NCBI GenBank assembly: GCA_021846845.1
Contig: JAJZWB010000024.1
Span: forward strand, 1-36,525
From: Actinomycetes bacterium
GTDB taxonomy: Bacteria; Actinomycetota; Thermoleophilia; Solirubrobacterales; Solirubrobacteraceae
Direction of reading: 5' to 3'
Length of the DNA stretch: 36,525 bases
A program made the position numbers and the translations under genes. The notes under the pieces were generated by a model. The model was not told the origin of the DNA. It saw only the letters and a list, made by a program, of their open reading frames with translations, and made no database searches. Positions 1 through 32,677 of the stretch are shown here, piece by piece. Position 1 is the stretch's first letter. The number at the start of each line of letters is the position of its first letter.

Positions 1-2933
1 TCTTCGGCGAAGCTCGACAGCCGGTTGATCCCGGTCGCCGTCGAGACCTCTGCCCGGCGGCCGACGGGGATCCCGGCCAGCCGCAGCCACGGCCTCGTGT
101 AGACCGTCGCGTAGAGCGCGAACAGCGACGACCGGCTCGCGCCCAGCAGCTCCTCCGTGAACCACATCGCCCATGCGGTCGCGCCTGCGGCGGGCTGCAG
201 CCCGGGCCTGATCAGCCTTGAGACAAGGCGAACCGGCACCGCCACCAGCAGGGCCTCGGTGAGGATGAACGACGCCGCCAGCACGGGCAGCAGGACCGCC
301 AGGTGCATCGCGGCCGTCACGGCATCCCAATGCCTCGGCTCGGCCGCCAGCACGATCGCCAGGGCCGGGACCGCGGACAGCAGCGACAGCAGGTTGGAGG
401 CGGCCATTCCGAAGGCGTACATCGCCTTCCAGCGGCGCTGTCCGGGCTGCGGGGCGGGTGGCTGGGGCGGCCAGTGCTCGCCTGCCTCACCGACCCGTGT
501 CGCGGGGGAGCCCGCCCAGCGCTCGCCCGCCGGCACCTCGCCCGAGACGACGCTGCCGGGCTCGATCTCGGCGCCGGCGCCGACCCGGGCACCCGGCATG
601 AGCAGCGCTCGCGTGCCGATCCGCGCGCCCGGCCCGACCGTGATCTCGCCGACGACCAGCTCGGATCCCTCGAGCCACCAGCCGTGCAGGTCGACGCCGC
701 CCTCGATCGTCGCTCCGTCGCCGATCGAGACGAGCCCGGTGACCGGCGGCAGCGTTCCCAGACGGGTCTCGCGCCCGACCCGGTGGCCGCTCAGCCGCGC
801 CATCCGCCACGCCCACGGCGTGCCTGCCAGCCTGTCGTAGCGGTATCGGTCGGCCACCCGCTCCACGAACCACAGCCTCAGCGACAGCCAGCCGTTGCGG
901 GGGTGGCGACCGGGCCTGAGGTCGGCGAGCAGCACGCGCCGGCAGGCGGCGACGATCAGCCCGCGGCTCGGCGGGCTCGCGAACACGATCCAGCCGCCGA
1001 TCAGCCATCCCCAGCCGACCTGCGGTCCGACGCCGCCGGGGAGGAGTCGGTCGAGCGTCAGCACCGCAAGCACCCATTCGGGCGCCGCCAGCGCCAGCAG
1101 CACCATGATCCCCGCCATCTGGACCACTCCCCGCACGCGCGGGCTGCCGGCCGCGAGCGCCGTCTGCTCGGACTCACCGCTGCCGAGCTGGGCGAGTCGC
1201 GACGCGAGCGCGCGCAGCGTACGGTGGTTGTAGACGTCCGCGACCGCGATCGACGGATAGCGCTCCCGCAGCGCGGAGGCCAGCTTGGCTGCCGCCAGCG
1301 AGCTGCCGCCGAGCGTGAAGAAGTCGCTCTCGGGTCCGATCGCGACCGGTCCGAGCTGCTCGGCGAAGCGCTCGGCGAGCCAGCGCTCGGCGTCGGTCAG
1401 CCTGGCGGCCGCCGGGTCTCCGTCGTCGGCCTGCGCCGGCGGTGGCCATGGCAGCGCACGCCGGTCGACCTTGCCGGAGGTCGCCAGCGGCAGCTCGGGC
1501 AGGCGCACGATCTGCGGGATGAGCTCCGCGGGGAGCCGGCTCGCGAGCTCGGAGCGGATCTCCTGCGCGGTGGCATCGCCGGCCACGTAGCCGACCAGCA
1601 GGCGGTTGCCGGCCGCGGTCTGGCGCACGACGGTGCAGGCGGCGCGCACGCCCCGCACCGCGTCCAGCTGGGCATCGATCTCGCCCAGCTCGATCCGACG
1701 ACCGCCGATCTTGACCTGATGGTCGCGCCGGCCGACGAACTGGAGGCCGGCCTCGGTCTCGCGCACCACGTCGCCCGTCCGGTAGGCCCGCTGCCACCGC
1801 AGCGCCGGCAGCGGCCGGTAGCGGTCGCGGTCCAGCTCGCGGTCCAGATATCGCCCGAGTCCGACTCCGCCGATCACCAGCTCGCCGGGGTCGCCCGGCT
1901 GCACCGGCTCGCCTTCGTCATCGATCACGGCGACCAGCCAGCCGTCGAGCGGGCGCCCGATCGTCACCGGCTCGTTCGGATGGACCCTCGCGGCTGTGCT
2001 GACGACCGTGGCCTCGGTCGGGCCGTAGGTGTTCCACACCTCGCGGCCGGCGGCCAGGCGCCAGGCGAGCTGCTCGGGCAGCGCCTCGCCGCCGAGGATC
2101 AGGAGCCGCACGCCGGCGAGCGACTCGTCGTCCCAGATCGCCGCCAGCGCCGGCACCGTCGAGATCACGGTCACGCCGTGGCGTCGCAGCCAGGGGCCCA
2201 GCTCGTGGCCGGCCCGGATGAGGTCGCGCGGCGCCGGCACCAGCGCGGCCCCATTGGCCCACGCGAGCCACATCTCCTCACAGCTCGCGTCGAAGGCCAC
2301 CGAGAGCCCGGCGAGCACGCGATCCGTCTCGCGGACCTCCCAGAGCAGCTGCTCGGCGGCCACGAACGCAGCCGCGGCCCGGTGGTCGACCGCCACGCCC
2401 TTGGGCTCGCCGGTCGAGCCTGAGGTGAAGATCACCCAGGCGTCGTCTCCGGGAGTCGGGCGCGGATCGCCGCCGAGCTGCCCCCCTCCTGGTCCGCGCC
2501 AGTCGGGCTCGAGCCCCGGTCCGAGCACCGCGCACACCGCGGCGTCCCGGAAGATCTGCTCGGCGCGCGCGGCCGGGTCGTCGGCATCGACGGGGACGTA
2601 TGCGGCGCCCGCCCTCAGCACGCCGAGGATCGCGACGTACAGCTCGGATCCGCCGCTGGGCAGCCGCACGCCGACGCGGTCGCCGCGCCCCACGCCGGCG
2701 GCCCGCAGTCGCTCGGCGACCGCCTCGGCCGCCTCCGCGAGCTCGGCGTAGGTCAGCAGCCGGTCGACGGCGTCGAGCGCCGGGCGATCCGTCCACGCCG
2801 CGACGCTCGCGTCGAACACGTCCAGCAGCGTCGTCGCGCCGGCCGCTCGGGCGACGGAGGCTGTGACGGGCTGCGTGCCCCGACGTTGCGGCTGTGTGTC
2901 GTCGACGGTGAGTTCGAACATCTGCTGCTCCAT
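1..2933 (-). CDS. Pls/PosA-type NRPS-like poly-amino-acid synthetase (3' end outside window)
   Basis: About 977 codons are visible and the frame is still open at base 1. The order is an adenylation domain, a peptidyl carrier domain, membrane segments and a hexapeptide-repeat region; there is no condensation or thioesterase domain in view. Adenylation motifs read: A3 FTSGSTGEPKG (~res 165), A4 FDASCEEMW (~213), A5 NTYGPTEATV (~299), A7 YRTGDVV (~383), A8 GRRDHQVKIGGRRIELGEID (~396) and A10 SGKVDRRAL (~488). The carrier site is FFTLGGSSL (Ser ~541). Hydrophobic stretches lie near 605-645 and 838-890, flanking I/V-G-x-G repeats typical of left-handed beta-helix proteins (~725-800). This architecture matches epsilon-poly-lysine synthetase (Pls) and its relatives, which activate one amino acid and polymerise it at the membrane. 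The start is either ATG 2933 or ATG 2921; the latter has GGAG 6 nt upstream. Product identity is inferred, and Pls-like proteins are also annotated in strains not known to make a polymer. Confidence 0.88.
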   Translation of the reverse strand, partial: MEQQMFELTVDDTQPQRRGTQPVTASVARAAGATTLLDVFDASVAAWTDRPALDAVDRLLTYAELAEAAEAVAERLRAAGVGRGDRVGVRLPSGGSELYVAILGVLRAGAAYVPVDADDPAARAEQIFRDAAVCAVLGPGLEPDWRGPGGGQLGGDPRPTPGDDAWVIFTSGSTGEPKGVAVDHRAAAAFVAAEQLLWEVRETDRVLAGLSVAFDASCEEMWLAWANGAALVPAPRDLIRAGHELGPWLRRHGVTVISTVPALAAIWDDESLAGVRLLILGGEALPEQLAWRLAAGREVWNTYGPTEATVVSTAARVHPNEPVTIGRPLDGWLVAVIDDEGEPVQPGDPGELVIGGVGLGRYLDRELDRDRYRPLPALRWQRAYRTGDVVRETEAGLQFVGRRDHQVKIGGRRIELGEIDAQLDAVRGVRAACTVVRQTAAGNRLLVGYVAGDATAQEIRSELASRLPAELIPQIVRLPELPLATSGKVDRRALPWPPPAQADDGDPAAARLTDAERWLAERFAEQLGPVAIGPESDFFTLGGSSLAAAKLASALRERYPSIAVADVYNHRTLRALASRLAQLGSGESEQTALAAGSPRVRGVVQMAGIMVLLALAAPEWVLAVLTLDRLLPGGVGPQVGWGWLIGGWIVFASPPSRGLIVAACRRVLLADLRPGRHPRNGWLSLRLWFVERVADRYRYDRLAGTPWAWRMARLSGHRVGRETRLGTLPPVTGLVSIGDGATIEGGVDLHGWWLEGSELVVGEITVGPGARIGTRALLMPGARVGAGAEIEPGSVVSGEVPAGERWAGSPATRVGEAGEHWPPQPPAPQPGQRRWKAMYAFGMAASNLLSLLSAVPALAIVLAAEPRHWDAVTAAMHLAVLLPVLAASFILTEALLVAVPVRLVSRLIRPGLQPAAGATAWAMWFTEELLGASRSSLFALYATVYTRPWLRLAGIPVGRRAEVSTATGINRLSSFAE

Positions 2934-3344
2934 GTCGGCTGGGCGGTCACGGTCGGTGTCCTCCAGCGGGTCGGCCAGCCCGGCCTGGGACCCCCTGTAA
3001 GGTAGGCATAAGGTCGTGACGCGACGGTTTCGCCTTTAGGGGGGTTCTGTTAGCGACCTCGGGGCCTAACAAAGTCGCAACGAAACCATGACATCCGACC
3101 AGCACGATGGACGTGAGCCTCAACACCGTCGCGCGTCGCCGGCGCGTCGAGGCGAGCCGGGCCCTCCGGTCGTTCGCGTCAGCCGTCCGTACGCCAGCCG
3201 GTCGATCGACCGGGTCGCGTCACGCGGGGCGCGTCAGGCGGGGCGCGTCAGGCGGGGCGCGTCACGCGGGGCGCGTCACGCGGGGCGCGTCAGGCGGGGC
3301 GCGTCAGGCGGGGCGCGTCAGCCCGGTCGGCTGAGCTCCGCTCC
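2934..3344 (-). promoter_or_regulatory. Gene-free region upstream of the NRPS-like gene, with nested inverted repeats
   Basis: This 411-bp gap lies between the loader gene and the synthetase, both on the minus strand. It contains TAAGG at 2998-3002 repeated at 3009-3013 (one helical turn apart). It also holds nested inverted repeats: GGTTTCG 3026-3032 with CGAAACC 3081-3087, GCGAC 3021-3025 with GTCGC 3074-3078, and GTTAG 3049-3053 with CTAAC 3066-3070. A minus-strand TACCTT (3004-2999) could be a -10. The remainder is the 14-bp tandem repeat listed separately. No convincing ORF was seen. A regulatory role is an inference from position and symmetry only. Confidence 0.4.
3217..3328. repeat. 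14-bp tandem repeat, seven units plus a degenerate eighth
   Basis: Seven contiguous units of the form GCGTCASGCGGGGC occupy 3217-3314. They differ only at position 7 (C,G,G,C,C,G,G), and a partial unit follows to 3328. The period is not a multiple of three, so a conserved coding role is unlikely. The array sits 16 bp beyond the stop codon of the DnaC-like gene, between it and the NRPS-like gene. Replication slippage is the likely origin. Confidence 0.9.
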
Positions 3345-4031
3345 TCAGGCGATCCTGGGCTCGAGCCGACGGTCGGGTCCGAGCAGCGGCAGCTCGTCGC
3401 ACATCTCGGTCAGCCTTGAGACAGTCCGTTCGCTGATCTGCTCGCACAGAGCCTCGCGATCGAGGATGTTGGTGGTGATCACGATCGACCGCTGCTCCTC
3501 GTAGCGCGCGTTGACGATCGAGTACAGCTCCTCCAGCACCCAGTCGGTGGTGCGTTCGGCGCCGACGTCGTCGATGTGCAGCAGGTCCACGCTCGTCAGC
3601 CGGTCAAGCAGGTCGATGTGCGATCGGTCCGCCCGGTGGGTGTCGCGGATCTCGTTCAGGAGCCGCGGCAGCGAGTAGATCGCCACGGTGCGACCGCCGT
3701 CGTAGGCGGCCCTGGAGACGAGCATCGCCAGCGTGGTCTTGCCGGTCCCCGGCGGCCCCATGAACCAGAGCCCGCGGCCCTCGTCCAGCTGCTCGTCGAT
3801 CCTCGTCACGAAGCGCCGCACCGCCGCCACGATCCGCGGCTCGATCTCGGTCACCGGCGGGCGCTCGAACGAGACGTCGCGATAGCGCCGCGGGATCACG
3901 GCCGAGAGGCTCTGAGCCCTGCGGCGCGCCACCAGCTGCCGCCTGCAGCGGCAGTCATAGGCCGTGTTGGTGGCCTCGTCGTAGCGCAGGCCCGAGCCGT
4001 CGCAGATCTCGTAGGGGCAGCGGGCGCTCAT
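3345..4031 (-). CDS. DnaC/DnaI-like AAA+ ATPase, probable helicase loader
   Basis: The product has 228 residues. The N-terminus carries four cysteines (C5, C10, C27, C29) in a compact zinc-finger-like arrangement, as in the metal-binding parts of DnaI/DnaC loaders. The AAA+ core follows: Walker A GPPGTGKTT (92-100), Walker B LLHIDD (150-155), sensor-1-like ITTN (185-188), and a downstream SERTVSRL stretch that may carry the arginine finger. Homologues load the replicative helicase onto DNA; the same fold occurs in IstB of IS21 elements. No transposase or IS ends are nearby, and dnaB ends 88 bp upstream on the same strand, which favours the loader role. The ATG at 4031 is the only plausible start near the Cys motif. 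Confidence 0.85.
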   Translation of the reverse strand: MSARCPYEICDGSGLRYDEATNTAYDCRCRRQLVARRRAQSLSAVIPRRYRDVSFERPPVTEIEPRIVAAVRRFVTRIDEQLDEGRGLWFMGPPGTGKTTLAMLVSRAAYDGGRTVAIYSLPRLLNEIRDTHRADRSHIDLLDRLTSVDLLHIDDVGAERTTDWVLEELYSIVNARYEEQRSIVITTNILDREALCEQISERTVSRLTEMCDELPLLGPDRRLEPRIA

Positions 4032-4119
4032 GGCCGTCGACGCGATCCCGCGGTCCTGGTCTCGCCGAGACCCGCGGACCGGACCACGCCGAGACCCGGG
4101 AGCCGGAGAGGCTCAGAGG

Positions 4120-5475
4120 TCACTCCCGGAACCGATCGCCGGCGTAGTTGGCGAACTTCGGCACCTCCTTGCGGAAGGTGAGCACCACGTCCCCCACGGG
4201 CCCGTTGCGGTGCTTGGCGATGATGATGTCGGCCTCGCCGGGCCGCTCGGAGTCCTTCTCGTAGTACTCGTCGCGGTAGATGAACATGACCAGGTCCGCG
4301 TCCTGCTCTATCTGCCCGGACTCGCGCAGGTCGGAGAGGATCGGCTTCTTCTCGCCGCCCCGCTGCTCCACCGCGCGGCTCAGCTGGGAGAGAGCGATCA
4401 CGGGCACGTTCAGCTCCCGCGCGAGACCCTTGAGTCCGCGGCTGATCTGGCCGACCTGCTCGACGCGGCTCTCGATCCGTCCCTCGTGGCGCATCAGCTG
4501 CAGGTAGTCGATGATGATCAGGCCGAGCCCGCCCTCGACCTGGCTGTGCAGCCGCCGCGACTTGGCACGGACCTCCAGCACGCCGGTGTCCGACGAGTCG
4601 TCGACGAACAGCGGCGCGCGCGCGAGGCGGTCGCAGGCCTCCAGGATCTTCGGCCACTCGCGCTCGGGAACCTTGCCGCGGCGCAGGTCCTCGCCCTTCA
4701 GGTTCGCCTGCGACGCCACGAACCGCTGCGCGAGCTCGGACTCGGACATCTCAAGCGAGAACAGCGCCACGGCGTGGCCGGCCAGCGCGGCGTTCTCGGC
4801 GATGTTGGCGACCAGCGCCGACTTGCCCATCGACGGTCGCGCGGCGACGATGATCAGGTTCCCGGGCTGGAAACCGCCGGTCTTCTCGTCCAGGTCCCGG
4901 AACCCGGCGGGCGTTCCGGTCAGCGCCGTCTTGGCGACCGACAGGCGGTGCAGCTTGTCCGTCTCGTCGTGCAGGATGTCCGAGATCGATCGGATCCGCT
5001 TCTGGCGCTCGTCGGTGGCGACCTCGAGCACCGAGCGCTCCGCCTGCTCCACCAGCTCGCGTGCGGGCGCCTCGCGCGCCAGCACGCTGGCCTGGATCTC
5101 GTAGGAGGCGGTCAGCAGCGCCCTCAGCCTCGCGTTGTCGTGCACGATCCGGCCGTACTCCCGCGCGTGGCCGGCTGCCGGGACCCAGCCGGCCAGCTCC
5201 TCGATCGCCGCCGGGCCGCCGACCTCGTCGAGCTTGCCGTCCTCACGCAGCCGCTCGGCGACCGTCAGGTGGTCGATCTTCGAGTCGCCCTCGTAGAGCT
5301 TCAGCATCGCTGCGAACACCGCCCCGTGCGCCTCTCGGTAGAAGTGCTCGGGACGGAGATGTTCCTCGACGAGCAGCGCGTGCAGGTGGCGCTCGTCGAG
5401 CAGCACGGCGCCCAGCACCGACTTCTCGGCCTCCAGGTTGTGAGGCGGGACGGCGATGCTCTGGACGGCGCTCAT
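4120..5475 (-). CDS. dnaB: Replicative DNA helicase DnaB
   Basis: The product has 451 residues, the usual size. The N-terminal primase-interaction domain (PHNLEAEKSVLGA at 11-23) leads through a linker to the RecA-like motor. Visible motifs are Walker A RPSMGKS (213-219), Walker B IIIDYLQLM (320-328) and the arginine-finger region KHRNGP (421-426). It unwinds DNA 5'-to-3' at the fork as a hexamer. There is no sign of an intein, which is common in dnaB genes. It lies downstream of rplI in the usual rpsF-ssb-rpsR-rplI-dnaB order, but a 250-bp gap with a strong hairpin separates it from rplI. A minus-strand TATTCT (5491-5486) ends 10 nt before the ATG, so dnaB may have its own promoter with almost no leader. 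Confidence 0.97.
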   Translation of the reverse strand: MSAVQSIAVPPHNLEAEKSVLGAVLLDERHLHALLVEEHLRPEHFYREAHGAVFAAMLKLYEGDSKIDHLTVAERLREDGKLDEVGGPAAIEELAGWVPAAGHAREYGRIVHDNARLRALLTASYEIQASVLAREAPARELVEQAERSVLEVATDERQKRIRSISDILHDETDKLHRLSVAKTALTGTPAGFRDLDEKTGGFQPGNLIIVAARPSMGKSALVANIAENAALAGHAVALFSLEMSESELAQRFVASQANLKGEDLRRGKVPEREWPKILEACDRLARAPLFVDDSSDTGVLEVRAKSRRLHSQVEGGLGLIIIDYLQLMRHEGRIESRVEQVGQISRGLKGLARELNVPVIALSQLSRAVEQRGGEKKPILSDLRESGQIEQDADLVMFIYRDEYYEKDSERPGEADIIIAKHRNGPVGDVVLTFRKEVPKFANYAGDRFRE

Positions 5476-5589
5476 CTGACGATCGAGAATAGGCTCGCCG
5501 TCGGCGGGCGGGCCGCCCTCGTTCCCGCACCGTGCGCGGTTTGCCTGCGCCGGGGTGCGGGCGGTCAGGTCGCCCGGGTCGCGGGCCCC

Positions 5590-5661
5590 GTCCGGAGTGG
5601 CATCCGCCCGCCGGTCACGCCGATGGGCTGAGGCCAGGTCCGGAGTGGCATCCGCCCGCCG
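5590..5661. repeat. 24-bp direct repeat between rplI and dnaB
   Basis: Two identical 24-base copies occupy 5590-5613 and 5638-5661 (start-to-start 48 bp). Each is followed by S-T-C-A-C (GTCAC, then CTCAC). They lie just beyond the rplI-side hairpin, upstream of dnaB. No function can be assigned. Confidence 0.85.
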
Positions 5662-5670
5662 CTCACAGCG

Positions 5671-5697
5671 CCCGGACGGGCCGCGGGCCCGTCCGGG
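5671..5697 (-). terminator. 12-bp perfect hairpin downstream of rplI
   Basis: CCCGGACGGGCC (5671-5682) and GGCCCGTCCGGG (5686-5697) form a perfect 12-bp stem with a 3-nt loop (GCG). It lies 30 nt beyond the rplI stop codon in the direction of transcription. No T-tract follows, which is common for GC-rich actinobacterial terminator candidates. It could terminate or attenuate the ribosomal-protein transcript before dnaB; an operator role is also possible. Confidence 0.55.
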
Positions 5698-5726
5698 GAG
5701 ATGAGCGCTAGAAGAGCGCGCCGCCG

Positions 5727-6176
5727 TCAGGCGGCGACGACCATCGTCTTGACGGTCGCGGTGACTTCGTCGGCTACCTCGACGACCACCATGTAGGTGC
5801 CGACGTTGCGGATCGGCTCATCGAGGTGGATCTTTCGCCGGTCGACCTTGAGGCCGCGGGCATCGCGGATCGCGTCCGCGATGTCCTGGGTCGTGACCGA
5901 TCCGAACAGGCGCCCGTCGTCGCCGGCCTGCTGCGAGATCGTCAGGACAGTCCGTCCGAGCACCGAGGCGCTCTCGCGCAGGCGGGCGACCGCCTCCCGC
6001 TCGGCCCGCTCGATCTCCTCCTGGCGCTTGCGCGCCGCTCGGACAGATGCTTCCGTTGCGGGCTCGGCCAGCCCGCGGGGGCGCAGGTAGTTGCGGAGGT
6101 AGCCGGCCGAGACGTCGACGACGGTGCCGCGCTCGCCGAGCTCCGCCACGTCCTGCAGCAGGATCGCCTGGGGCAT
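5727..6176 (-). CDS. rplI: 50S ribosomal protein L9
   Basis: The product has 149 residues, the normal length. The N-terminal RNA-binding domain (AILLQDVAELGERGTVVDVS, then AGYLRNYLRPRGLA) is connected by a charged helix rich in Arg, Glu and Ala (about 45-75) to the C-terminal domain (LFGSVTTQDIADAI, then IHLDEPIRNVGTY). L9 binds domain V of 23S rRNA and helps maintain reading-frame fidelity. The ATG lies only 6 nt after the rpsR stop with no clear Shine-Dalgarno sequence, so translation is probably coupled to rpsR. Confidence 0.97.
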   Translation of the reverse strand: MPQAILLQDVAELGERGTVVDVSAGYLRNYLRPRGLAEPATEASVRAARKRQEEIERAEREAVARLRESASVLGRTVLTISQQAGDDGRLFGSVTTQDIADAIRDARGLKVDRRKIHLDEPIRNVGTYMVVVEVADEVTATVKTMVVAA

Positions 6177-6182
6177 CGCGCG

Positions 6183-6503
6183 CTAGCGGTCGCGGTCGCG
6201 GTCGCGGTCGCCGCGGCCGCCACGGTGGTCGCCACTGCCCTCGGCCACGTATGGCAGCAACGCAAGCTCCCGAGCCCGCTTCACCGCGCGGGCGACCTGG
6301 CTCTGATGGCGGCGGCAGGCGCCGCTGATCCGCCGCGAGCGGATCTTGCCGCGGTCGGAGATGAACCGCCGCAGGATCGACACGTCCTTGTAGTCGACCT
6401 GCTCGATCTTTTCCCGGCAGTAGGGACACGACTTGCGGCGAGCGGATGCCGCTCCGCCCTTGCGGTCGCGCCTGCGAACCGGCCGTCTGCGTTGCTTTGC
6501 CAC
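6183..6503 (-). CDS. rpsR: 30S ribosomal protein S18, zinc-ligand form with Arg/Asp-rich tail
   Basis: The product has 106 residues; S18 is usually about 75-90. The core carries C26PYC29, C63 and H66, which together look like the zinc-binding (C+) form of S18. The familiar core stretches [18 protein letters not shown] and RRISG are present. The start is GTG at 6503. After the conserved ALLPYV the protein has a low-complexity tail rich in Gly, Arg and Asp ending in Asp-Arg dipeptides, encoded by a perfect 6-bp microsatellite. It is co-oriented with ssb (35-bp gap) and rplI (6-bp gap). The tail is probably disordered; its function is unknown. Confidence 0.96.
6186..6209. repeat. rpsR: 6-bp microsatellite at the 3' end of rpsR
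   Basis: Four perfect GCGGTC units encode Asp-Arg dipeptides immediately before the rpsR stop codon. Slippage would change the tail length without a frameshift, because the unit is two codons. Confidence 0.9.
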
Positions 6504-6538
6504 GTGGACCAGCCTAGCTTCTCGAAGTTGCTTTCAGC

Positions 6539-7015
6539 TCAGAAGGGTATGTCATCGTCCGCCGCAGCGCCTGCGCCGACCGGGTTGCGCTCGAAGTCCG
6601 CGGTGTCGATCGGGACGTCGCTCTCCGCCGTGCGCGCGCTGCTCGCGTATCCGTTCCCGTTCCCGCCGTCTTCGCGACCGCCGAGGAACTGGACGTTCTC
6701 GGCGATGATATCCACCGACTGGCGCTTGTTGCCCTGCTGGTCGGTCCACTCGCGCCACTGAAGGCGGCCGTCGATCGCCACGCCACGGCCCTTGCGCAGG
6801 AACCGGGCGCAGTTGTCGGCCTGAGCGCCCCACACGGTGACGTCGAAGTAGTTGGGCTGGTCCTCCCACTGGCCGGTCTCGCTGTTCTTGCGCCGGCCGT
6901 TGCATGCGATCCGCAGCGAGCAGACCGAGTTGCCGCTCGATGAGAGCGTCCGGTGCTCGGGGTCGCGGGTCAGGTTGCCGGTGATGATCACCCGGTTGAT
7001 GTTGCTGCCAGCCAT
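6539..7015 (-). CDS. ssb: Single-stranded DNA-binding protein
   Basis: The product has 158 residues. The OB fold begins MAGSNINRVIITGNLTRDPE; further conserved parts are YFDVTVWGAQADNCARFL, GRGVAIDGRLQWREW and VDIIAENVQFLGG. The C-terminus is the classic acidic tip DDDIPF, which docks replication and repair partners. The start is placed at ATG 7015 because AAAGGAG precedes it by 7 nt, one of the clearest ribosome-binding sites in the window; the open frame continues upstream to 7216 but that part is not SSB-like. It sits between rpsF (after a 406-bp gap) and rpsR. Confidence 0.97.
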   Translation of the reverse strand: MAGSNINRVIITGNLTRDPEHRTLSSSGNSVCSLRIACNGRRKNSETGQWEDQPNYFDVTVWGAQADNCARFLRKGRGVAIDGRLQWREWTDQQGNKRQSVDIIAENVQFLGGREDGGNGNGYASSARTAESDVPIDTADFERNPVGAGAAADDDIPF

Positions 7016-7421
7016 GCTCTGGCTCCTTTCCGGCTGCGTTACAAGCTCTCGACCGAGTCTATGGCCGGGCCAGACGTCAGCGGTGATGCCTCCGCGGAAA
7101 CTGGCACCGATTCGTGACCTTCCGCCACACAGCCGACACACCCCCAGTCTCCGCGCCGACCGCCGGCGCGCATCGGGTCGCCCGTCCAGCGGCCGTGCGC
7201 GGCACGCCCCCGGCATCGTCGAAACCCCGCCGGTGCGCGGGGTCCCGACGTCCTTGGGTCCCGGAGCGCTGCGAACCCGGTGCGCCGGATACCGGCGTCG
7301 CAGGATCGCCGGCGTCTGGGAGACCGGGGTCGTCGGACCCAGGGGTGTCGAACCGCCGTTCGTGCCCCTGCGTCATGTCGCCGGGATGGGATCGCTCAGG
7401 ATCCGGGCGCCGGCCGGTTGC
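7016..7421 (-). other. 406-bp spacer between rpsF and ssb, no gene recognised
   Basis: In many bacteria rpsF and ssb are nearly adjacent; here about 400 bp separate them. A 99-codon frame (7376-7077, minus) has no ribosome-binding site and reads as polar low-complexity sequence, so I do not call it. A small perfect hairpin CGCCGG-ATA-CCGGCG lies at 7283-7297. The ribosome-binding site of ssb lies at the 7016-7028 end. Confidence 0.6.
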
Positions 7422-7820
7422 TCAGCGCTCGATCGGCGCTTCGGCCGGAGCCTGGCCCGTGGCCGTCCCGCTGCCGGCGCCGGTCAGGACCGGTGGGGGC
7501 GAGTCGGGCGGCGGCGGGGTCCCGGGCGTGACCTTGATGATCCGGAACCGCAGAACGGCGTCGTCGATCCGAAGGCTGTGCGAGAGGGAGTCCAGCACGG
7601 CCGTGGGTCCGGTGAACTGGATCAGGTGGTACTCGCCCTCGCCCTGATGGGAGATCTCGAAGGTCAGCGGCCTGGCGTGCCATTCGTCCCGCCGCTGCAC
7701 GGTGCCGCCCCCGGCGGCGATCTGCGACTCGACATCGGAGATGAGCTTCGCGCGTCGCTCCTCCTCCACCGCGGTGGAGAGGATGAGCATCAGGTCGTAT
7801 AGGCGTGTGCTGTTGGCCAT
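7422..7820 (-). CDS. rpsF: 30S ribosomal protein S6 with Pro/Ala-rich C-terminal extension
   Basis: The product has 132 residues against the usual 95-100. The core shows YDLMLILSTAVEEERR, GGGTVQRRDEWHARPLTFEI and GEYHLIQFTGP, ending near FRIIKV (about residue 98). The last ~33 residues are a Pro/Ala/Gly/Thr-rich extension that is probably disordered. S6 binds S18 in the small subunit, and here both partners have unusual C-terminal tails. It is the first gene of the rpsF-ssb-rpsR-rplI block, with a candidate promoter at 7856-7861. Confidence 0.95.
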   Translation of the reverse strand: MANSTRLYDLMLILSTAVEEERRAKLISDVESQIAAGGGTVQRRDEWHARPLTFEISHQGEGEYHLIQFTGPTAVLDSLSHSLRIDDAVLRFRIIKVTPGTPPPPDSPPPVLTGAGSGTATGQAPAEAPIER

Positions 7821-32464: not shown

Positions 32465-32520
32465 GGGAGGGCAGGTCATGCCGCGCCGCGGCACGCGCGC
32501 CGCGCCCCAGCGTCCGGATC

Positions 32521-32646
32521 GCGTTGGGCTCTGGGGTCCGGGGCGCGTCGGGATTCCGGGTGGCGTTGGGCTCTGGGGTCCGGGGCGCGTCGGGATTCCG
32601 GGTGGCGTTGGGCTCTGGGGTCCGGGGCGCGTCGGGATTCCGGGTC
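32521..32646. repeat. 42-bp tandem repeat, three copies
   Basis: Three essentially identical 42-bp units start at 32521, 32563 and 32605; only the last base of copy 3 differs. Degenerate sequence flanks both sides. The unit includes GGGGTCCGGGGCGCGTCGGG. The period is 14 codons, but no credible gene covers it. Confidence 0.92.
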
Positions 32647-32677
32647 GCGCTCGGCCCTGCGCTCCGGGTTGGCGCGA

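What the first reader, a model, noticed from the sequence alone, without database searches (positions are those of the whole stretch)
1..2933. Pls/PosA-type synthetase with an adenylation code that points to a basic amino acid
Seen: A-PCP-TM-hexapeptide-repeat architecture with no condensation domain. Aligning the A4-A5 region by eye to the GrsA reference positions gives D235, A236, E239, S278, I299, G301, T322, V330, V331. Known: Glu at position 239 in this context is associated with lysine/ornithine-type substrates, and lysine codes I recall begin D-A-E-S-I-G. Inference: the enzyme may make a cationic homopolymer (poly-lysine, poly-ornithine or poly-diamino acid) in a lineage where such polymers are little described.
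Basis: partly seen in the sequence, partly recalled or inferred. Interest (0 to 1): 0.62.

Follow-up and report, generated by a model that had tools for sequence, protein, structure and literature searches.

The report
Poly-lysine synthetase with its own activator
A little-studied group of soil bacteria carries the gene for the enzyme that makes the antimicrobial polymer epsilon-poly-lysine, next to a small partner gene that should switch the enzyme on; elsewhere the neighbouring gene usually encodes an enzyme of the type that breaks the polymer down.

Summary
Window 3-2933 (minus strand) encodes the first 977 residues of an A-PCP-membrane synthetase. Window position 1 is a contig end; the rest of the gene lies on contig C169 of the same genome, and the joined ORF is 1291 aa with all tandem C-terminal domains (TIGR02353, 547.7 bits, cut-off 423.1). 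The by-eye specificity code is exact: DAESIGTVVK, identical at all ten positions to the crystallised epsilon-poly-lysine synthase A domain (59% identity). 'Basic amino acid' can be narrowed to L-lysine, and the most likely product is epsilon-poly-L-lysine. The family is widespread (at least 589 relatives in GTDB contigs), so the synthetase is a new member of a known kind.

The new part lies outside the window. In Solirubrobacterales, pls is followed directly by a compact Sfp-type phosphopantetheinyl transferase (20 of 20 loci with room; 0 of 72 elsewhere). Elsewhere the downstream partner is usually a PldII-type M1 peptidase (58 of 71; 0 of 20 here). In the window's genome this PPTase is the only non-AcpS one, and Pls the only NRPS-type carrier protein. 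I infer that pls here travels with its own activating enzyme. Substrate, product and PPTase activity are inferred, not shown.

The parts
3..2933 (-). pls, 5' part (residues 1-977 of 1291); the rest lies on contig C169 of the same genome (L009 from 16946 to the contig end). The partner PPTase ORF is at L009 16191-16928 (-), outside the window
1443..2828 (-). adenylation domain, residues 36-497
   Evidence: Pfam PF00501, TIGR01733; 7wew 542 bits, 59% identity; model aligns to 7wew with Z 54.6
2277..2291 (-). code residues D215, A216, E219 (GrsA 235, 236, 239)
   Evidence: identical in 7wew
2160..2162 (-). code residue S258 (GrsA 278)
2091..2099 (-). code residues I279, G281 (GrsA 299, 301)
2001..2030 (-). 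code residues T302, V310, V311 (GrsA 322, 330, 331)
1470..1472 (-). K488 (GrsA K517)
1179..1406 (-). peptidyl carrier domain, residues 510-585; phosphopantetheine serine S545 (codon 1299-1301) in GG-S-S-L
   Evidence: PF00550; S545 invariant in alignment A5
930..1139 (-). TM helices 1-2, residues 599-668
   Evidence: model mf409341bf6ae, hydropathy for the first helix
486..791 (-). first hexapeptide-repeat domain C1, residues 715-816
   Evidence: PF00132, TIGR02353, beta-rich in the model
219..440 (-). TM helices 3-4, residues 832-905

Best explanation
The gene is an epsilon-poly-L-lysine synthetase (Pls). The A domain adenylates L-lysine and loads it on the carrier domain as a thioester. The membrane-embedded tandem C-terminal domains then join successive lysines through side-chain amide bonds, so that a cationic homopolymer is made at the membrane. 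In this lineage the enzyme is co-encoded with a compact Sfp-type phosphopantetheinyl transferase directly downstream on the same strand, which most likely converts apo-Pls to holo-Pls. The window's genome otherwise has only AcpS-type PPTases and no other NRPS, so the synthetase seems to bring its own activator. Shown by computation: architecture, code identity, gene order, co-occurrence. Inferred: lysine as substrate, the polymer, and PPTase activity on Pls.
For: Full-length TIGR02353 1-695/695, 547.7 bits against a cut-off of 423.1. Best PDB match by sequence and by fold is the epsilon-PL synthase A domain 7wew (542 bits; Z 54.6). Code DAESIGTVVK equals that of 7wew and is shared by 85 of the 96 rows with the code columns readable (99 rows incl. 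the window, a few genomes twice). Ala at 236 marks lysine; PosA M218A raised lysine use nearly tenfold (PMC10522769). Code identity to Pls was taken as strong evidence for lysine in coryneforms, where one member was confirmed by expression (PMC8117764). PPTase: PF01648 above cut-off in 10 of 10 tested; adjacent in 20/20 Solirubrobacterales loci with 3' room and 0/72 others; 14 of 101 relatives have it and all 14 have Pls (Fisher p 2e-15, no correction for shared descent); 8 of 8 hits of a wider search that were followed up have pls upstream, 6 of them not in the profile; a relative's model (pLDDT 90.8) aligns to PCP-bound Sfp 4mrt with Z 13.6, rmsd 2.7, 146 residues. The genome has two AcpS and no condensation domain.
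Against: No biochemical data for any Solirubrobacterales member. Code and A-domain identity do not show polymer formation or chain length. The usual downstream PldII peptidase is absent, so release, turnover or self-protection may differ. The PPTase of the window's genome has an N-terminal extension of 33-bp repeats in frame, so its true start is unsure. A compact N-lobe could alter carrier recognition. The gene is joined from two contigs.
Confidence: 0.8

Rival explanations
1. The A domain prefers another basic amino acid (ornithine, diaminobutyrate, beta-lysine or arginine), giving a different polymer.
For: Glu239 only demands a positive side chain; PosA activates lysine as well as ornithine, and a Bdellovibrionales homologue with Glu at the same position prefers arginine (PMC10522769).
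Against: All ten code positions equal lysine-activating Pls; Ala, not Met or Phe, at 236. No lysine 2,3-aminomutase of family TIGR03820 in the genome, although the controls ring, which speaks against poly-beta-lysine. The ornithine synthetase A domain is only 34-35% identical.
Confidence: 0.1
2. The enzyme activates lysine but makes only short oligomers, or transfers lysine to an acceptor such as a lipid or sugar, rather than a free polymer.
For: The C-terminal domains are hexapeptide acyltransferase-like; there is no adjacent polymer-degrading enzyme as in other Actinomycetota.
Against: The same C-terminal architecture over its full length as in Pls-type proteins, whose polymer has 25-35 residues (PMC9205021, abstract).
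Confidence: 0.12
3. The downstream PPTase serves another carrier protein of the cell, such as a stand-alone acyl carrier protein, and its place next to pls is incidental.
For: The genome has three other PP-binding hits, and PPTases are often promiscuous (general knowledge).
Against: Relatives without Pls lack this PPTase; it follows pls at several different chromosomal sites; the genome has two AcpS for acyl carrier proteins.
Confidence: 0.08

Closest known systems
epsilon-poly-L-lysine synthetase Pls of Streptomyces albulus (A-domain structure 7wew is of an epsilon-PL synthase)
   Same: A-PCP-6TM-three tandem C-terminal domains; identical ten-residue code; 59% identity in the A domain of 7wew
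   Different: In S. albulus pls overlaps pldII by 4 bp in one operon (PMC4361855); here the partner is a PPTase, and a PldII-type M1 peptidase was not found in the window's genome
Pls of Corynebacterium variabile and other coryneforms
   Same: Same architecture; codes there identical or highly similar to Pls (PMC8117764)
   Different: Operon with a peptidase; no PPTase partner described there
PosA, delta-poly-L-ornithine synthetase of Acinetobacter baumannii (8g95-8g98)
   Same: Same architecture; conserved Asp and Glu of the pocket
   Different: Code DMEHNGTVSK, 34-35% A-domain identity, single-gene operon
Sfp-type 4'-phosphopantetheinyl transferases (Sfp, PptT)
   Same: Fold and the D-x-E and W..KEA motifs
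   Different: About 130-170 aa instead of about 220-230; reduced N-terminal lobe; tied to pls

Membership tests
Pls/PosA family synthetase (TIGR02353) | Full-length C-terminal domain above the curated cut-off | tested here: met
   547.7 bits, cut-off 423.1, 1-695/695 on the joined protein
Pls/PosA family synthetase (TIGR02353) | A-PCP head, no condensation or thioesterase domain | tested here: met
   Pfam; no PF00668 in the genome
Pls/PosA family synthetase (TIGR02353) | Six TM helices separating three C-terminal domains | tested here: met
   TM helices 1-4 in the model of residues 1-977; two more hydrophobic segments at 1080-1126 by hydropathy
epsilon-poly-L-lysine synthetase | Lysine specificity code of characterised Pls | tested here: met
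   DAESIGTVVK in both
epsilon-poly-L-lysine synthetase | Falls with Pls and not with Dap/Dab/Orn synthetases | tested here: inconclusive
   Groups with 71 other Actinomycetota Pls-type rows, away from two F236 proteins; the characterised PosA, PDAP and PDAB proteins were not in the tree
epsilon-poly-L-lysine synthetase | Operon with a PldII-type M1 peptidase (usual context, not a defining trait of the enzyme) | tested here: not met
   0 of 20 Solirubrobacterales loci; not found in the window's genome
epsilon-poly-L-lysine synthetase | Makes epsilon-poly-L-lysine | not testable with these tools
   needs assay
Sfp-type PPTase | ACPS family domain with D-x-E and KEA motifs | tested here: met
Sfp-type PPTase | Two-lobed fold of about 225 aa | tested here: inconclusive
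   The model aligns over Sfp 1-210 but with only 146 residues (Z 13.6): a reduced N-lobe
Sfp-type PPTase | Transfers phosphopantetheine to the Pls carrier domain | not testable with these tools
   needs assay

The most novel reading that the evidence does not exclude
A separate lineage of poly-lysine synthetases in Solirubrobacterales travels as a two-gene unit with a miniaturised, dedicated phosphopantetheinyl transferase, in place of the polymer-degrading peptidase found elsewhere. This lets genomes with no other nonribosomal peptide machinery make the polymer, presumably with a different way of self-protection.
Probability: 0.65. Interest if true: 0.55.

Novelty: new variant of a known kind. 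Interest (0 to 1): 0.5.

Why it matters
It extends predicted epsilon-poly-lysine production to Solirubrobacterales, a soil group in which I found no paper on it. It also offers a portable pair: a synthetase with a very small PPTase that may be its own activator. It makes two questions testable: how a Pls without PldII protects its host, and whether a PPTase with a reduced N-lobe can be specific for one carrier domain. One carrier of the pair, Conexibacter sp. S30A1, has a complete genome.

Tried and rejected
A truncated or degraded gene: rejected, the missing 3' end is on contig C169 and the joined ORF is intact. Poly-beta-lysine through lysine 2,3-aminomutase: no TIGR03820 in the genome. PldII elsewhere in the genome: none found, with positive controls ringing; G039 and G046 do have related M1 peptidases at other sites. 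A first gene-caller count gave the peptidase next to 50 loci; a tblastn count raised it to 58 because wrong-frame calls had hidden some. The PldII paper PMC2935060 is not held. A paper search for poly-lysine with phosphopantetheinyl transferase gave four papers, none of which, by title, abstract and the one passage read, describes the pairing.

Full report
The gene. Window 3-2933 (-) is the first 977 codons of a synthetase that runs off the contig start. A search of the same genome finds the missing end on contig C169. The two ends overlap by 141 bases, with 3 mismatches within the first 15 bases and 126 identical bases after that; the joined ORF has 1291 aa. The first bases of the window's contig end are therefore unsure, but the frame continues, and the protein is 75.5% identical to that of relative G004 over 1275 aligned columns. 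The joined protein matches TIGR02353 over its whole length at 547.7 bits, cut-off 423.1. Pfam gives AMP-binding, PP-binding and Hexapep. A model of residues 1-977 has mean pLDDT 85.8 but pTM only 0.52, so the domains are reliable and their arrangement is not.

The code. D215 A216 E219 S258 I279 G281 T302 V310 V311 K488 are the same as in 7wew, the epsilon-PL synthase A domain. The published PosA pocket is DMEHNGTVSK; Glu221 binds the side-chain amine, and the second position is proposed to set chain length: Ala in lysine enzymes, Met in PosA, Phe in Dap/Dab enzymes (PMC10522769). Among 99 collected rows (the window included, a few genomes twice) 85 have DAESIGTVVK, 6 DAESIGTVIK, 3 DAESVGTVVK, 2 have F at position 236, and 3 fragments lack the region.

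The lineage. The chromosome of Conexibacter sp. S30A1 has the same length as the single contig of G012, a genome of the window's genus; I take them as the same genome. The window groups with 18 other rows, a set separated from 71 other Actinomycetota rows (SH-aLRT 95; quick tree, no bootstrap). One of the 18, L068, is a fragment titled Acidimicrobiia on a long branch, so its place is unsure. Pls is patchy: 16 of 101 relatives by my count, at several chromosomal sites.

The partner. Directly downstream of pls is an ORF with the PF01648 domain. In 20 of 20 Solirubrobacterales loci with 3' room (18 genomes, as two genomes appear twice) this PPTase follows pls on the same strand; 5 further loci end at the contig edge. 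It is absent at the 72 other Pls-type loci; a few Arthrobacter-type loci have an ordinary PPTase more than 1 kb away. A PldII-type M1 peptidase (Pfam PF01433) follows pls in 58 of the 71 of these with 3' room, and in none of the 20. In S. albulus pldII overlaps pls by 4 bp (PMC4361855). Across 101 relatives the PPTase is in 14 genomes, all with Pls; the two other Pls genomes are cut at the contig end. Fisher p is 2e-15, without correction for shared descent. A search of 232 genomes of the order found 21 with it; 396 genomes spread over the phylum gave only the window's own. Eight hits of the order search were followed up and all have pls directly upstream; six of these were not in the profile. 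G584, and probably G004, have two copies.

The genome's other PPTases are two AcpS of 124 and 122 aa. There is no condensation domain, and Pls is the only carrier-domain protein of NRPS type; three other PP-binding hits lie in small frames. This makes a dedicated activator plausible. The PPTase model from a relative (L060, pLDDT 90.8) aligns best to PCP-bound Sfp, Z 13.6, rmsd 2.7, 146 residues against Sfp 1-210, identity 16%: the Sfp fold with a shortened N-lobe. In the window's genome the PPTase ORF starts 17 bases after the pls stop and holds a 33-bp repeat array in frame, which relatives lack.

Limits. Everything on substrate, polymer and PPTase action is inference from sequence and predicted structure. 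The tree is a quick one. The genome is a draft of 219 contigs at 95.3% completeness, so absences are provisional. The absence of papers is an absence in an open-access library only.

Noticed in passing
window 3211-3321: 14-bp direct repeat CGGGGCGCGTCAGG, 7.9 copies, between the pls start and the dnaC-like gene.
   Followed up: no
L009 16683-16799: 33-bp repeat, 3.5 copies, in frame inside the 5' part of the PPTase ORF; relatives lack it.
   Followed up: partly
window 32513-32668: 42-bp direct repeat, 3.7 copies.
   Followed up: no
L040 7846-11934 and L053 1725-5719: Two genomes of the same genus carry a different Pls/PosA-type synthetase (codes DFEVLSVVSK, DFECLSVVSK; 31-32% identity), with Phe at 236 as in Dap/Dab synthetases; no PPTase of this family was found in either genome.
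   Followed up: partly
L147 (G004 C132 end), L159 and L160 (G584): Second copy of the PPTase; in G584 with a second pls, in G004 the contig ends where pls would be, beside tilS-hpt-ftsH as in G008 and G015.
   Followed up: partly
L058: A contig titled 'Chlamydiae bacterium' carries a pls-PPTase pair that falls inside the Solirubrobacterales clade; its length equals that of a contig of G584, a genome placed in the window's family. The title is probably wrong.
   Followed up: partly
window 3345-7820: pls lies beside a dnaC-like gene and the dnaB-rplI-rpsR-ssb-rpsF cluster, with purA on the other side (C169).
   Followed up: no
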